Shown one piece after another: positions 20,842 through 25,433 of a stretch of 32,533 nucleotides of DNA; positions within the stretch are counted from its first letter, which is position 1; every line of letters begins with the position of its first letter. The notes below the pieces were generated by a model. It was given only the letters and a program-made list of their open reading frames with translations. It was not told the origin of the DNA and did not search any database. Origin of the DNA: Streptomyces phytophilus (GTDB taxonomy: Bacteria > Actinomycetota > Actinomycetes > Streptomycetales > Streptomycetaceae); assembly GCF_013870535.1 (NCBI RefSeq), contig NZ_JACBXC010000009.1, positions 1 to 32,533 of the forward strand. The letters are read 5' to 3'. The position numbers and the translations under genes were made by a program.

Positions 20842-21459
20842 CCCCAGCACCTCACGCAGACGCCCCGCCACCACCTTCTCATCCAGCGCCAGCAACGGCG
20901 TGATTCCCAGACCTGCAGCGGCTGCAAGATTCTCTTCACCGTCGTCGACAAACAGGCACCGCTCGGCCGGCACCCCGAGCTTGTCGAGCACCAGCCGGAA
21001 TATCGCCGGGTCCGGCTTGCGCAGCCCGTGCTCCGCGGAGAGCACGACCTCATCGAAGGTGCCCTGCAAGTCGAACCCCGCGTAAGGATCGTACGGATCC
21101 CGACCGAGACTGTTGGACAACACCGCCGTCTTCACCCCGGCAACGCGCGCCAGCCGCGCGACGTTCAGGACCTGGTACGCCGGGAAGGCGTCGTGGAGAT
21201 AGCGGGCCATCAGGTCGTCAGGTGAAGTGCCGATCAGGGCTGCGAACCCGCTGTTCCACTCCGGTTGGCTGATCTTGCCGAGTTCGAGCTGACGGAACAG
21301 CTCCTGCCCGCGCGGATCCGCCCAGGCCCGAAGAAACGTCCCCCGAACGAGTTGCTCCCGTTCCTCGAAGTACGAGATCACCTCGACCATGTTGGCCGTC
21401 AAGACCCCGAAGAAGTCGAAGATCACGCCACCGAACCTGGGCTCCGCCGTCCTCGCCAT
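20827..21459 (-). CDS. HAD superfamily hydrolase-like protein (210 aa)
   Basis: HAD fold with its four motifs: I, FDFFGVLT; II, AVLSNSLG; III, the Lys in GLRKPDPAIF; IV, CLFVDDGEENLAAA. The nucleophile Asp is present, but the usual second Asp of motif I (D-x-D) is replaced by Phe, as in the D-x-G/F subgroup, so it may be a weak phosphatase or have another role. Size and helical cap fit subfamily IA. The ATG at 21459 has TGAGGA immediately before it, unusually close; a GTG just upstream of motif I is less likely. It converges on the XRE regulator with a 15-base overlap. Confidence 0.83.
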   Translation of the reverse strand: MARTAEPRFGGVIFDFFGVLTANMVEVISYFEEREQLVRGTFLRAWADPRGQELFRQLELGKISQPEWNSGFAALIGTSPDDLMARYLHDAFPAYQVLNVARLARVAGVKTAVLSNSLGRDPYDPYAGFDLQGTFDEVVLSAEHGLRKPDPAIFRLVLDKLGVPAERCLFVDDGEENLAAAAGLGITPLLALDEKVVAGRLREVLGLAGL

Positions 21460-21525
21460 TCCTCAAGCCTACGGCCGGGGAGCAAGGAACAGCCCTCCCG
21501 GCAGAGGAGACCCTGCCCCACGTGG

Positions 21526-21912
21526 CTAGCCCGCGCCGCCTCCGGCGTGATGTGGTGCCGGCGGCTGCCGCGTGGACGTCGCCCGGGGCGGCGTCCGGCT
21601 CAGGTCGCCGCCGCGGGGGATGCCCACTGGCGGATCCCCTGTCGACAGGACGAGCATCACTCGGGCGTCCCATCGGTAGGTGCGGCAGAAGGTCTCGTCC
21701 CTGCTACTAAGTTCAGGGACGGGGAGCCGGATCGTGAGCTGCAGGCCGATGGTCCGATCCGGCCAGTCGTGTCTGGCCATCACGCTGGCCAGGCGCCAGT
21801 CGCTCAAGGTGTAGACGAGCAGGCGCGGCGGGTGGCTGGGCGAGTAGATCCGGACGCGCGGCGGCGGACCCATGTCGGGGCACCACGGCTGAACCTCGAT
21901 CGCTTCACTCAC
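21526..21912 (-). CDS. small hypothetical protein (128 aa)
   Basis: I do not recognise this gene. It probably starts at a GTG (21912); the open frame continues upstream through the repeat patch, but codon bias is lost there. The protein has a tryptophan- and arginine-rich middle (VYTLSDWRLASVMARHDW, IGLQLTIRLPVPEL) that looks like beta strands, and a disordered proline-rich tail (PPRATSTRQPPAPHHAGG). No ribosome-binding site is obvious, so it may be leaderless. The 19-bp repeats lie immediately upstream of its start. Confidence 0.5.
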   Translation of the reverse strand: MSEAIEVQPWCPDMGPPPRVRIYSPSHPPRLLVYTLSDWRLASVMARHDWPDRTIGLQLTIRLPVPELSSRDETFCRTYRWDARVMLVLSTGDPPVGIPRGGDLSRTPPRATSTRQPPAPHHAGGGAG

Positions 21913-22193
21913 GTGTGCGAGTCTAGGTCGGAACTGTCTCATCACAAACGACCTGGTCCACGGCCACGACTGTGACTTGCGACGACCAGATCGCTTGAGA
22001 CGAAAGCGCCCGGGAATCTCAGCCGATCTGGTCCCGGAGCTGCGAACGCGCCGCGTTCGCCCTGCCGCCGACCAGGGCGTCTCAACCGACATGGCCGGAC
22101 AGGACCAGATCATCCGAGGCGGGGACCAGAACGGCAGAGACGGGACAGGAGCCTGCTGGGCGGGTTGGTGTCGCTCAGGTCCTGTCTCGCCGA
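21913..22193. repeat. 19-bp dispersed repeats, patch B
   Basis: Copies of the 19-mer: CGACCAGATCGCTTGAGAC (21983-22001), GGACCAGATCATCCGAGGC (22102-22120) and GGACCAGAACGGCAGAGAC (22123-22141) on the plus strand, and GGACCAGATCGGCTGAGAT on the minus strand (22034-22016). A looser version with a five-base insertion lies at about 21936-21959. The element TCCTGTCTCGCCGAAG at 22178-22193 matches the end of the palindromic unit at 3.9 kb. Copies occur in both orientations, unlike patch A where all point the same way. No gene overlaps the patch. Confidence 0.7.
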
Positions 22194-22613
22194 AGATGGC
22201 ACCGTTCCATTGTCATCGTGCGATATCTCAAATAGGACCTGTGCGAAATGCGATTGGTCGCTCGTGCACCTGATCTGATGAACCTCGCCGTGCGAGTTCG
22301 GCATTGCGTGGGCGCGGGTGGCAGATTCTGTCGTGCACGTCGGTGGCTCATCACCGGCGTCCGCCTCATGCCGCCGTCGGCGGAGCAGGAGCAAGCCGCG
22401 AGACGTCCAGACGCCACCGAGGCGCTGTTGGGGCTGATCGTTCTTCGGGCGTTGGCAGGTGGGCCGTACGGGGCGAGGACCGCCACACACCCTCTCCGGG
22501 GTATTGGCCCGTTTCTCGTCGGCACGAGGCTTCGGCTCTCGGGCGCGTGACGCGCTCCCGATAGACGGGAGCTTGTGCGTTCGCCCGGCACGCCTGGGTG
22601 GAAGGAAAACATC
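22194..22613. other. leader region of the 836-aa gene
   Basis: About 420 bases without a credible gene. A short hairpin, GCTCCCG and CGGGAGC around a five-base loop, lies at 22554-22572, about 40 bases before the ATG, and may affect translation. GGAAGGAA at 22600-22607 is the ribosome-binding site. No convincing -35/-10 pair was found. Confidence 0.4.
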
Positions 22614-25124
22614 ATGGTCGCGACACGAAGCGACGTCATCTTCCCGCGCATCGGCACCGACGCCTGGGGCCGGAAACTCGCGGACGCCATCGAGAACACC
22701 TGCGCGGAACTCGGGGTCGTGCCCCCTCCCCGGCAGGCGATCACCGAGGGTCTGGCCACCGCCCTCCCGGACACCGAGATCAAGGGCCTGACCGTCACCC
22801 GGAGCGGCAAGAGGATGCTCAAGCCCACGGCCCACCGTCTCGTGCAGGCGGGCGACGAGCAGGTGCTCTTGCTGATGTGCGACGTCCATGGCGCTGCGGT
22901 GGCCCCGTGGGACCTCAACGACCGCACCGTCGGCTGCTGGTCGCCGCCCGTTGCTGAGGCCAGCCAGCGAGTCAAGGAACTCATCGCTGCTGAGCTGGCG
23001 CTGAACGAGGCCAGGAAGACCAAGGGGACGACAGAGAAGGAGCGGGAGAGGTGCCGCCGCGCAGCCGGAGACGACACCTACGCCGCGCAGGCCCTGGAGG
23101 CGGCCAAGCAGAAGCACAAGGACGCTGAGGCCCGCGTGGCGGAACTCGAACGCGAGCGTCAGGCCCTCCTTACCGCCCTCGGTAACCGACGGCCGCGGCC
23201 TGTGGTCCGGGCAGCAGAGCAGGACGGGAAGCCGAAGGCGGCGCTCACCCTCGCCGAGCAGCCGTATGAGGTGGCCGTTCATTTGCAGCGGTACGCCGCC
23301 GAGAATCTGGAGCGTGCCGGCAAGACCCGCGGCTACGACCTGACCGAGTCCCTTGTGGACGCGGGCCAGCTCTCCAAGGGCATGAACGTCCTGCAGCAGT
23401 GGCAGATCACCCGCCCCGACGGCACGGTGCTGAAGTTGTGGCGACTGGCCGCCGTGACCGGGAACAACCGGGCACTGGCCCGTCTCGACATCTTCCGTGT
23501 GCGTCCGGAACACCTGGTCACGGGGATGCCCCAGTCCCTCCTGCCCATGCCGAAGGGCAAGAAGGCCGACCCCGGGCTGCTGCTGCTGGGTCAGCGGGAG
23601 ATCCTGAACCGGCTCTCCGACCGGCTCAACGCGGTCACCGCCAACCCGGAGACGGAAGCGACCGACCCGGCGGTCCGCGCCGAGAAGATCGCCACGGTCT
23701 CCGCGGAGATCGTGATCGGCTGCACCAAGCCTGCGGCCCTGGAACACGTCCTGCGGACGCTGAATGTCAACGACCACCTGCGCGGCATCCAGCCCTACGA
23801 CGAGGACGCGCGCCTGATCGCCCTGTTCGCGACGCTCGTCGACGCATACGCCAGGGAATCGCTCCTCGCGGACGCACTCGCCGAGGCGTTCCCCGACGCG
23901 CGCGGCGCGGACCTCCTCGACCTGGTCGGCGTGCGCGACGCGCTGACCGCCAACGGACCGCTCGACCCGCTCGTGCCGCTCGTGCCTGCGGGCGACGACA
24001 TCGCCCCGGTCGTGCTCCGCGACATCGCGGTGCGCGCCATCACCGCGCTCGTATTCCCCGAGATCCCGCCCGAGTCCCCGGAGCGGACGAACGCACGCAC
24101 CGTCCGCGACACGGGGCGCTTCTGGCCGATCGTCAGGGGCACGCTGCAGGAGTCGGCGTGGAGCAGGACCAGGGCGAAGGCAGCCCAGGCACGCACCCGC
24201 CTGTGGTCCGCCGCCATCGCCCAGCTGTTCGTGCACCGGGGCAACATCCTCTCCGCCCTCGGCTTCTTCGGCGTCCAGGAGACCGCCACCGGCGCCGGGC
24301 AGGACCCGCGGTCGCTCAAGGCGCTCCTCCTCGGAGCAGAGGCCGGCGACGCGACCGCCTGGAACGCCCTCGTCCAGCGCATGGCACCGGCGCTGATCCA
24401 CGCGCCACAGCCGTTCATCACCGCCGGCCAGGGCAGCGAGGCCGGCCACGACCGCAAAGGCGTGCGACGCACCCCCACAAGCGCCCTCGCCGCCCTCAGC
24501 CTCGCGTACACGGCAGCCAGCAGCCCGAAACCCAGCCGGGCACTCCTCCTCGCGTTCGCGAAGGCAGTGTTGGAGCACCCGGACGCGACCCAGCCGCCCG
24601 AGGCGGAAAGCGGCGAAACTCTGATCTGCTACGGCGAACAGCACTGGGTTGAAGGGCATACGCCCATCACCGCCGGGATGATCACCGCTCCTGACAGCGG
24701 GGGCCGACCCACCCGCTACATCGCCGACAAGGAATGGTTCGACGAGACGTTCCCCGTGGAACTCGGTATCCCGGCCGCGAGCAACACCGCCACTTCCCCC
24801 ACGGCCGGGACCAGCGAGGGCACCACTGCCACCATCCACGGTGCTCCGCTGGCTGACCCACACGACCAACTGGCCACGCTGCGCCGGGAGCTGCCCGCCC
24901 GTGTGGAACTCGTCGAGAGCGGCTACCAGCAGGCCGTGGACTCCGCCCACACCCTGATGACCGATTTCGAAGAGGCCCACCGCCTACGCGTCCAGCTCGA
25001 AGAGGACGCGCTCCCGGCCGAGCAGCGGATCGAGTGGATGGAGAAGCTGACGAAAGCCCGGGCCGCGGCACAGGCCAGCACGACGACGCTCGAACAGGTG
25101 GAAGCGCTGATCCTCCAGGTCTGA
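22614..25124 (+). CDS. large protein of unknown family (836 aa)
   Basis: I do not recognise this protein. The ATG at 22614 has a strong GGAAGGAA site. Visible layout: residues 1-115 mixed (VTRSGKRMLKPTAHRLV, LLLMCDVHGAAVAPWDL); 120-190 a charged coiled coil (LEAAKQKHKDAEARVAELER); 215-310 a mixed segment with RPDGTVLKLWRL and VTGNNRALARLDIF, faintly like the G-x-R-R or DGQHR boxes of ParB-like/DndB-like folds; 330-680 an Ala-rich helical region; 690-740 a low-complexity Thr/Ala linker; and 755-836 a second coiled coil. No signal peptide or membrane segment. It stands alone, with its own leader and a perfect terminator, next to repeat patch B. Size and solitary setting would suit a defence or DNA-processing role, but I have no motif proof. 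Confidence 0.75.
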   Translation: MVATRSDVIFPRIGTDAWGRKLADAIENTCAELGVVPPPRQAITEGLATALPDTEIKGLTVTRSGKRMLKPTAHRLVQAGDEQVLLLMCDVHGAAVAPWDLNDRTVGCWSPPVAEASQRVKELIAAELALNEARKTKGTTEKERERCRRAAGDDTYAAQALEAAKQKHKDAEARVAELERERQALLTALGNRRPRPVVRAAEQDGKPKAALTLAEQPYEVAVHLQRYAAENLERAGKTRGYDLTESLVDAGQLSKGMNVLQQWQITRPDGTVLKLWRLAAVTGNNRALARLDIFRVRPEHLVTGMPQSLLPMPKGKKADPGLLLLGQREILNRLSDRLNAVTANPETEATDPAVRAEKIATVSAEIVIGCTKPAALEHVLRTLNVNDHLRGIQPYDEDARLIALFATLVDAYARESLLADALAEAFPDARGADLLDLVGVRDALTANGPLDPLVPLVPAGDDIAPVVLRDIAVRAITALVFPEIPPESPERTNARTVRDTGRFWPIVRGTLQESAWSRTRAKAAQARTRLWSAAIAQLFVHRGNILSALGFFGVQETATGAGQDPRSLKALLLGAEAGDATAWNALVQRMAPALIHAPQPFITAGQGSEAGHDRKGVRRTPTSALAALSLAYTAASSPKPSRALLLAFAKAVLEHPDATQPPEAESGETLICYGEQHWVEGHTPITAGMITAPDSGGRPTRYIADKEWFDETFPVELGIPAASNTATSPTAGTSEGTTATIHGAPLADPHDQLATLRRELPARVELVESGYQQAVDSAHTLMTDFEEAHRLRVQLEEDALPAEQRIEWMEKLTKARAAAQASTTTLEQVEALILQV

Positions 25125-25159
25125 CCAGCGCGGTAGAACCCCAACGCTGGCGTGCGTCG

Positions 25160-25190
25160 GCGGGCTCCTCAACGCAGTTGAGGAGCCCGC
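25160..25190 (+). terminator. strong hairpin terminator after the 836-aa gene
   Basis: Perfect 14-bp stem (25160-25173 with 25177-25190, core GGGCTCCTCAAC) and a GCA loop, 35 bases after the stop codon. Confidence 0.8.
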
Positions 25191-25277
25191 CCCCGGGAAC
25201 TACGCACGGGCAGCCACAGCACGCCCGGCAGCCACCAGCCGCGCATTATCGCCCCGGACCTGGTCACCGACGCCCAG

Positions 25278-25433
25278 ATGTGCCTCAAGCGCGGCGGCAG
25301 CGAACGGGCATGCGCCACCTGTCACCGCGCCCTCGACCACATGGACGGCGTCCGCTCCAACCGCATCGGCAATGCCGTCACCGGCATGCGCAACGACCTC
25401 ACCGCTTACGGGCCCGCGGCCTGCGACGCGTAG
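25278..25433 (+). pseudogene. C-terminal remnant of a TPR-type regulator
   Basis: A 51-codon frame ending at a TAG (25431). The segment LDHMDGVRSNRIGNAVTG resembles the final helix pair of Streptomyces XRE-TPR regulators, which end with a similar LD-x-VRS-x-RI pattern. No matching HTH or repeat coding sequence lies upstream; the terminator of the 836-aa gene is about 90 bases before. Probably a relic, possibly a chance frame. Confidence 0.35.

What the first reader, a model, noticed from the sequence alone, without database searches (positions are those of the whole stretch)
22614..25124. Solitary 836-aa protein with no recognised family
A large, well-expressed-looking gene with its own leader and terminator, two coiled coils and a VTGNNRALARL segment faintly like ParB/DGQHR boxes. 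It sits beside repeat patch B. Large solitary unknowns in accessory DNA are often anti-phage or conjugation genes.
Basis: inference. Interest (0 to 1): 0.6.

Follow-up and report, generated by a model that had tools for sequence, protein, structure and literature searches.

The report
Mobile unknown gene with conserved leader
A large Streptomyces protein of a family without known relatives occurs in changing genome surroundings together with an unusually conserved non-coding leader, sometimes beside bacterial defence genes, so it is a testable candidate for a new conflict gene.

Summary
In detail: an intact, solitary 836-aa ORF at 22614-25124 (+) with a terminator hairpin behind it and no significant match in Pfam, NCBIfam, PADLOC, PHROGs or PDB sequences. 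Its family has three branches (A, the window type; B, about 40% identity; C, about 25%), found in 34 of 392 sampled Streptomyces genomes. The surprise lies in front: 19 of 20 other A loci share 278-427 bp of non-coding DNA just before the start codon although flanking genes mostly differ. Its core is more conserved than fourfold-degenerate codon sites in 18 of 18 comparisons. A core box is shared with B genes; in 15 of 16 genomes with the exact box the gene, or a piece of it, follows; one has the leader alone. The leader ends in a terminator-like hairpin and a hairpin at the ribosome-binding site. Six B and two C genes are followed by a small GIY-YIG-like gene; one B locus has a PADLOC candidate-defence helicase; some A loci adjoin Wadjet-type or restriction genes. 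I read it as a leader-controlled accessory conflict (probably defence) gene. The ParB/DGQHR resemblance found no profile support, but that test was weak. Function is inferred, not shown.

The parts
22206..22613 (+). Conserved non-coding upstream block (promoter-side region plus mRNA leader) that goes with the gene; the part shared by nearly all A loci begins about 22318
   Evidence: blastn of the 2 kb upstream: 19 of 20 other A loci match over 278-427 bp at 72-92% identity, ending within 17 nt of the start codon; the exception L020 is a 5'-truncated, frameshifted copy; aligned
22267..22280 (.). Operator-like imperfect palindrome (roughly CACYYGATCNGGTG)
   Evidence: found by a pattern that fixes its left half 338-351 nt before the start in 19 of 20 A loci (window included), 3-7 of 7 symmetric pairs, perfect in L060. 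DNA site or RNA hairpin not decided
22336..22385 (+). Leader core box CACGTC[AG]GTGG...TGCCGCCGNCGGCGGAG, shared by branches A and B
   Evidence: exact pattern in 16 of 392 genomes, once each, reversed control 0; in 15 of the 16 the gene or a piece of it follows; also upstream of B genes
22554..22572 (+). Terminator-like hairpin in the leader (GCTCCCG/CGGGAGC), about 45 nt before the start codon
   Evidence: a hairpin at this place in the single-sequence fold of 20 of 20 A leaders, with changed but paired stems, e.g. L060 and L015
22580..22602 (+). Hairpin overlapping the ribosome-binding site (GGAAGGA at 22600-22606)
   Evidence: single-sequence folds, 19 of 20 (L008 folds differently); stem changed on both sides in L060, CCCAGC/GCTGGG
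22614..25124 (+). 836-aa ORF, branch A of a protein family without recognised relatives
25159..25191 (+). 15-bp perfect hairpin with 3-nt loop behind the stop codon; probable terminator
   Evidence: read from the sequence; downstream similarity to L008, L009 and L048 only

Best explanation
SHOWN: an intact gene of a family without recognised relatives, found in changing surroundings together with a strongly conserved non-coding leader of about 300 nt. INFERRED: it is a conflict gene (most likely anti-phage or anti-plasmid) whose product is kept low by the leader, through premature termination at the hairpin before the start codon and masking of the ribosome-binding site, and is released when a trigger acts on the conserved leader core. 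The protein, with long coiled coils and an invariant NRxxxR patch, would act as an oligomeric nucleic-acid-binding sensor or scaffold. In the B branch and part of the C branch it works with a small GIY-YIG-type nuclease encoded directly behind it; the A branch (window) acts without that partner.
For: Leader conserved in 19 of 20 other A loci while neighbours mostly change. Leader core identity exceeds both whole-CDS and fourfold-site identity in 18 of 18 comparisons. Core box followed by the gene or a piece of it in 15 of 16 genomes. No conserved upstream reading frame. Hairpins before the start codon in the folds of 20 of 20 (terminator-like) and 19 of 20 (ribosome-binding site) leaders; 37 double-changed cells against 15.7+-2.6 in shuffles, 11 double-changed pairs against 7.7+-1.3. 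Partner gene c1 within 36 nt behind the family gene in 8 of the 47 loci of the family cluster, some of them fetched twice; in the plasmid collection 4 of 4 records with c1 have a family member beside it. c1 carries [GA][ILV]Y, 10 residues, WLG, then R, H and E. PDC-S28 helicase (E 1e-295) downstream of the B gene of L067. Type ISP restriction gene beside the A gene of a linear plasmid; Wadjet-type, restriction and candidate-defence proteins among A neighbours. Frameshifted, truncated or fragmentary copies in several genomes.
Against: No fold: AF2 mean pLDDT 41 and 35. No PADLOC match for the window protein, one B or one C member. Random regions also contained defence genes (74 against 127 PADLOC families at E<=1e-10, tables cut at 25 rows). 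Leader folding energy is not exceptional and not strand-specific (whole leader: sense z -1.7, antisense z -2.4; core: -2.35 and -2.19; 60 shuffles each), so RNA function is not proven. c1 has no Pfam match in the five members scanned and no PDB match. Of six plasmids that carry the family, five have readable annotation and only one shows a restriction gene nearby. The window's own near neighbours do not look like defence genes. The core box was not found at the C loci.
Confidence: 0.35

Rival explanations
1. Accessory replicon-maintenance gene: a DNA-binding protein of linear replicons (telomere, segregation or copy control) with the leader as its DNA binding site.
For: Five of the six plasmid records found with a C query are linear. 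Mirrored B genes lie 5.3 kb from both ends of a 12.1-Mb chromosome, and one lies 3.8 kb from the end of a Kitasatospora linear plasmid next to an end-proximal helicase gene. A ParA-family gene is the third gene upstream in a 73-kb linear plasmid. A palindrome sits in the conserved block.
Against: Of four A genes on contigs over 7 Mb, three lie about 1 Mb or more from an end; the fourth, truncated, lies 58 kb from one. No profile link to ParB or DGQHR (weak test). Patchy presence and broken copies do not fit an essential maintenance role. Linear plasmids are common in these bacteria (recalled), so linearity alone says little.
Confidence: 0.2
2. The leader is a functional RNA that acts together with the protein (ribonucleoprotein), not only a cis-regulator of its mRNA.
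For: Leader core more conserved than the coding DNA; nearly complete leader without the gene in G215; core shared by A and B branches.
Against: Energy test not strand-specific; no Rfam match; a leader without the gene was seen in only 1 of 392 genomes and may be a remnant of gene loss; C branch lacks it.
Confidence: 0.12
3. The leader is only a long, conserved transcriptional control region (DNA operators) of an otherwise ordinary accessory gene of metabolic or stress function.
For: Dyad-symmetric palindrome; weak RNA energy signal; near neighbours in the window are an aminotransferase, an FGE-sulfatase-domain protein and an XRE-type regulator, with HAD- and NUDIX-like genes judged by eye.
Against: Conservation runs on to the start codon and includes a hairpin at the ribosome-binding site with paired changes; no enzyme family is recognised.
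Confidence: 0.25

Closest known systems
ParB N-terminal / DGQHR (DndB) domain proteins
   Same: A short Asn-Arg patch (VTGNNRALAR) looks like the GERR or DGQHR boxes (box names recalled; DGQHR boxes seen).
   Different: No Pfam hit; profile-profile probability 0.3% or less against 11 DGQHR/DGQQR proteins and a ParB set, in both of which a few rows may be in a wrong frame; the glycine of the patch is Ala in five aligned members.
GIY-YIG nucleases (for the partner gene c1 of branches B and C, absent from the window)
   Same: [GA][ILV]Y, 10 residues, WLG, then conserved R, H and E in 8 c1 proteins. PMC1564403 (passages only) describes two separate GIY and YIG boxes and an Asn motif that can be absent.
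   Different: No Pfam or PDB match; YIG is WLG; one member has AIY.
Attenuator-type leaders of Actinobacteria (whiB7-like, recalled)
   Same: Long leader with a terminator-like hairpin shortly before the coding region.
   Different: No conserved upstream reading frame; no Rfam match; the leader goes with one protein family.
PADLOC PDC-S28 helicase
   Same: A PDC-S28 helicase follows the B gene and c1 in L067; genes of the same cluster follow in L066, L068 and L069.
   Different: The B protein matches no PADLOC family, and c1 of L081 only UzuA at E 0.02; the window region shown has no such helicase next to the gene.

Membership tests
ParB/Srx superfamily (ParB_N PF02195, DndB PF14072) | Match to the family profile | tested here: not met
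   not among the 16 Pfam families that any of 34 members hit at E<=1
ParB/Srx superfamily (ParB_N PF02195, DndB PF14072) | Distant profile-profile similarity | tested here: inconclusive
   hhalign probability 0.3% or less; the same method gives 0.1% for DGQHR against ParB, so it cannot exclude the fold
ParB/Srx superfamily (ParB_N PF02195, DndB PF14072) | ParB/Srx fold | tested here: inconclusive
   AF2 models unusable; no fold search was run on them
Known anti-phage defence families (PADLOC-DB 2.0.0) | Match to a defence protein profile | tested here: not met
   0 families for the window protein and for one B and one C member
Known anti-phage defence families (PADLOC-DB 2.0.0) | Location in defence islands | tested here: inconclusive
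   127 PADLOC families hit by 125 neighbours at 18 A loci against 74 by 125 genes of random regions; both tables cut at 25 rows
Known anti-phage defence families (PADLOC-DB 2.0.0) | Protection against phage | not testable with these tools
   needs a phage challenge
Rfam RNA families | Match of the leader to a covariance model | tested here: not met
   three matches in 21400-25400, all E>=2.3 and outside the leader
Leader-peptide attenuators | Conserved upstream reading frame | tested here: not met
   the conserved ATG opens frames of 6 to 83 codons with shifts and stops
Leader-peptide attenuators | Terminator/antiterminator hairpins before the gene | tested here: inconclusive
   hairpin present in 20 of 20 leaders but with a short or no U-tract; alternative pairing not tested
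GIY-YIG nucleases (partner c1) | GIY/YIG boxes with R and E | tested here: met
   motif read by eye from 8 aligned c1 proteins; G of GIY is A in L084
GIY-YIG nucleases (partner c1) | Profile match | tested here: not met
   no Pfam family for five of eight members, no PDB chain up to E 10

The most novel reading that the evidence does not exclude
The leader is a structured non-coding RNA that forms a working complex with the protein, a portable RNA-plus-protein conflict system of Streptomyces; the two-gene form adds a GIY-YIG-like nuclease, and the leader can persist alone.
Probability: 0.12. Interest if true: 0.85.

Novelty: new variant of a known kind. Interest (0 to 1): 0.55.

Why it matters
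An 836-aa family without any recognised relative, in about 4% (A branch, 14 of 392) to 9% (all branches and fragments, 34 of 392) of sampled Streptomyces genomes, comes with a ready experimental handle: a short leader that has been selected together with it. If the leader proves to be a switch or an RNA partner, the trigger it senses would tell what the protein is for. If the gene protects, the A, B and C branches with and without the nuclease-like partner give a natural series for working out the mechanism.

Tried and rejected
ParB/DGQHR membership: not accepted for lack of profile support. One search used a DGQHR set with wrong frames, redone; there one of 11 rows (L168) and in the ParB set a few rows (e.g. 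L112) may still be in a wrong frame, which weakens the test. Leader as coding DNA: rejected. Leader as a known RNA: no Rfam match. A strong claim of RNA structure was withdrawn after the strand and shuffle control; the covariation counts may partly reflect relatedness. A hand-made alignment of the two 3' hairpins was misaligned in the distant rows and not used for counts. Phage origin: no relative in viral contigs and none of the A protein or leader in phage records. Leader in plasmid records: 1 record, the one already known. Of 46 genomes with any leader match, 32 have only short matches (E 8e-6 to 9e-4); I dropped these as short GC-rich matches, except the B core box of G168. Structure: two AF2 jobs failed for want of diverse sequences. 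Distribution outside the genus: four searches died; only the 61-genome sample and the scan bear on it. One search scored few candidates per genome, so its counts may be low. Papers: listings showed none on this family; passages only were seen of PMC1564403 and PMC11514479. I make no wider claim about print.

Full report
1. The gene. The ORF at 22614-25124 (+) is 836 aa, open, has a codon-position GC profile typical of high-GC coding DNA (0.72/0.50/0.88) and has the highest codon-model score of the window. GGAAGGA precedes the ATG. The own genome (6.9 Mb, 82% complete) holds one copy. A perfect 15-bp hairpin follows the stop at 25159-25191 (read).

2. The family. A search of 392 Streptomyces genomes gives matches in 34 (few candidates were scored per genome, so this may be low). 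I sorted them by hand into A (window type, 65-88% identity over the whole length) in 14, B (about 40%) in 5, C (about 25%) in 12, and short fragments only in 3. A against C is confirmed by profile-profile comparison (99.9% over 619 columns). In a 61-genome sample of relatives 6 have a match, one of them from another family of the same order. A scan of GTDB species genomes gave 14 loci, 13 in Streptomyces and one in Wenjunlia. A C query finds six plasmid records, five of them linear; the window query adds fragments in two more. Viral contigs and, for the A protein, phage records gave none. Broken copies: frameshift in G283, truncation in G381, fragments in G302, G189, G413 and G266, plus L021 and NBC_01166.

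3. What the protein resembles. Nothing significant in Pfam, NCBIfam, PADLOC or PHROGs (best single-member E 0.0054, in NCBIfam); PDB hits start at E 0.16 and are mostly coiled coils. Invariant positions in the 34-member alignment include N102, R104, R239, G251, Q252, N285, R286, R290, N384, H388, G607, S608, R618, R619, W708 and F709. The ParB/DGQHR idea found no support: probability 0.3% or less against 11 DGQHR/DGQQR proteins and a ParB set. The method also misses the DGQHR-ParB link and a few rows may be in a wrong frame, so this lowers but does not exclude the fold. Two AF2 jobs failed (mean pLDDT 41 and 35); only the coiled-coil stretch 114-188 was fairly confident.

4. The leader. I compared the 2 kb upstream of 20 other A genes with the window: 19 match over 278-427 bp at 72-92% identity, ending within 17 nt of the start codon; the exception is the 5'-truncated copy L020. 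Only 3 of 20 match downstream, over 36-73 bp. Flanking genes mostly differ; shared contexts are four loci with Wadjet-type genes (L016, L018, L019, L051), L008/L048, and L057/L059, besides single genes. In 18 loci where both could be measured, the leader (alignment columns 30-280) is 70-94% identical to the window and its core (columns 32-168) 78-98%, against 46-84% at fourfold-degenerate sites. The core exceeds whole-CDS identity in 18 of 18, the longer leader in 15 of 18. The leader is not coding: the one conserved ATG opens frames of 6 to 83 codons with stops and shifts.

5. The leader goes with the gene. The exact core box occurs in 16 of 392 genomes, once each, with no hit for the reversed control pattern. 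In 15 the gene follows, in G168, G218 and G381 only as a truncated gene or piece. The sixteenth, G215, has a nearly complete leader (83% over 289 nt) and no gene behind it. blastn finds the long leader (E<=1e-28) in 14 of 392 genomes: 13 of the 14 with an A gene, and G215. The missing one is G283, whose gene has lost its 5' part. B genes carry the core box exactly in G020, G161, G168 and G218 and, weakly scored (E 0.2) because of one inserted base, in G091. The Kitasatospora B gene lacks it, and none was found at the C loci.

6. Anatomy. About 347 nt before the start lies a palindrome with 3-7 of 7 symmetric pairs in 19 of 20 loci, perfect in L060; the search pattern fixed its left half. A hairpin at 22554-22572 (window) is in the single-sequence fold of 20 of 20 leaders, and one over the ribosome-binding site in 19 of 20, with paired base changes in L060 and others. 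RNAalifold proposes 76 pairs, 11 with double changes; 37 double-changed cells exceed 500 shuffles (15.7+-2.6), which related sequences can do by themselves. Against this, the whole leader folds little better than column-shuffled controls (z -1.7), the antisense strand scores z -2.4, and for the core the two strands are alike (-2.35, -2.19). Rfam has no match. So strong selection on the leader is shown; RNA hairpins at its 3' end are likely; structure of the core is open.

7. Neighbours. In 8 of the 47 loci of the family cluster (some fetched twice), six B and two C, a 138-176-aa gene (c1) follows within 36 nt, overlapping by 4 bp in four. In the plasmid collection all 4 records with c1 have a family member beside it. 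c1 reads [GA][ILV]Y, 10 residues, WLG, with conserved R, H and E, like GIY-YIG nucleases (PMC1564403, passages), but matches no Pfam family in five members scanned and no PDB chain. In four B loci a helicase follows; the one tested, L067, is PADLOC PDC-S28 (E 1e-295), and a 550-aa protein behind it matches PDC-M58A weakly (E 1e-5). The B genes of G091 lie 5.3 kb from both ends of its chromosome. Among 125 neighbours at 18 A loci, the 25 PADLOC families shown (of 127 at E<=1e-10) include Wadjet JetA3 and JetC3, restriction enzymes and methyltransferases, RmrA, PD-T4-6, HEC-06 and PDC-S18 (the table does not say which neighbour is which). Pfam adds Type_ISP_C and GmrSD_N, five integrase-domain proteins and several transposase matches. 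I gave 125 of the 140 selected neighbours: those of L018 and L019 were left out because their context largely repeats L016. The control, 125 of 135 selected genes from random regions of ten genomes that carry the family (four with an A gene), gave 74 families, including a DISARM and a PDC-M07 locus. The lists count families, not loci, so I call the enrichment suggestive. A relaxase-domain gene lies beside the A gene of L057, with a relative near L059. The window's near neighbours that were scanned are not defence genes.

8. Reading. Patchy, in changing surroundings, sometimes broken, near defence genes at some loci, with a nuclease-like partner in two branches: an accessory conflict gene is the best fit (0.35). 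The conserved leader suggests that the product must be kept off until needed. Rivals are a replicon-maintenance role on linear replicons (0.2), an ordinary accessory gene with a long control region (0.25) and an RNA-protein complex (0.12). None of the functions is shown.

Noticed in passing
window 21941-22142: Patch of imperfect direct and inverted repeats (GACCAGATC/GATCTGGTC types) just upstream of the conserved leader block; upstream similarity to other A loci stops before it.
   Followed up: partly
L125 8881-9165 (G215:C37:38880-39164): Nearly complete leader without a gene of the family behind it.
   Followed up: partly
L054 8200-8262 (G013:C1:6177199-6177261): Second, partial copy (69 nt of query, 83%) of the leader core, starting about 230 nt upstream of the full leader match.
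   Followed up: no
L066-L069: Recurrent gene row behind B genes: c1, helicase (PDC-S28 in L067), then a 550-aa protein (L067-L069) and a 378-388-aa protein (L066, L068, L069). The 550-aa protein has a GGDGGRD...YEAKS stretch that by eye looks like a PD-(D/E)XK nuclease; the other matches AbiJ_NTD3 weakly. Possibly a multi-gene defence locus.
   Followed up: partly
L067 5245-7701 (G091:C1) and L049 11989-14481: B genes mirrored 5.3 kb from both ends of a 12.1-Mb chromosome, as expected for terminal repeats; a Kitasatospora B gene 3.8 kb from a linear plasmid end beside an end-proximal helicase gene.
   Followed up: no
L084 11994-13319: Schlafen AlbA_2-domain protein behind c1 in a C locus.
   Followed up: no
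L016, L018, L019, L051: Three gene clusters (c6-c8) upstream of the A gene that I take for Wadjet type III genes, from their sizes and the JetA3/JetC3 hits.
   Followed up: partly
G000:C1329:25579-29027 (outside the window): Two DndB-family genes in the window's own genome.
   Followed up: no
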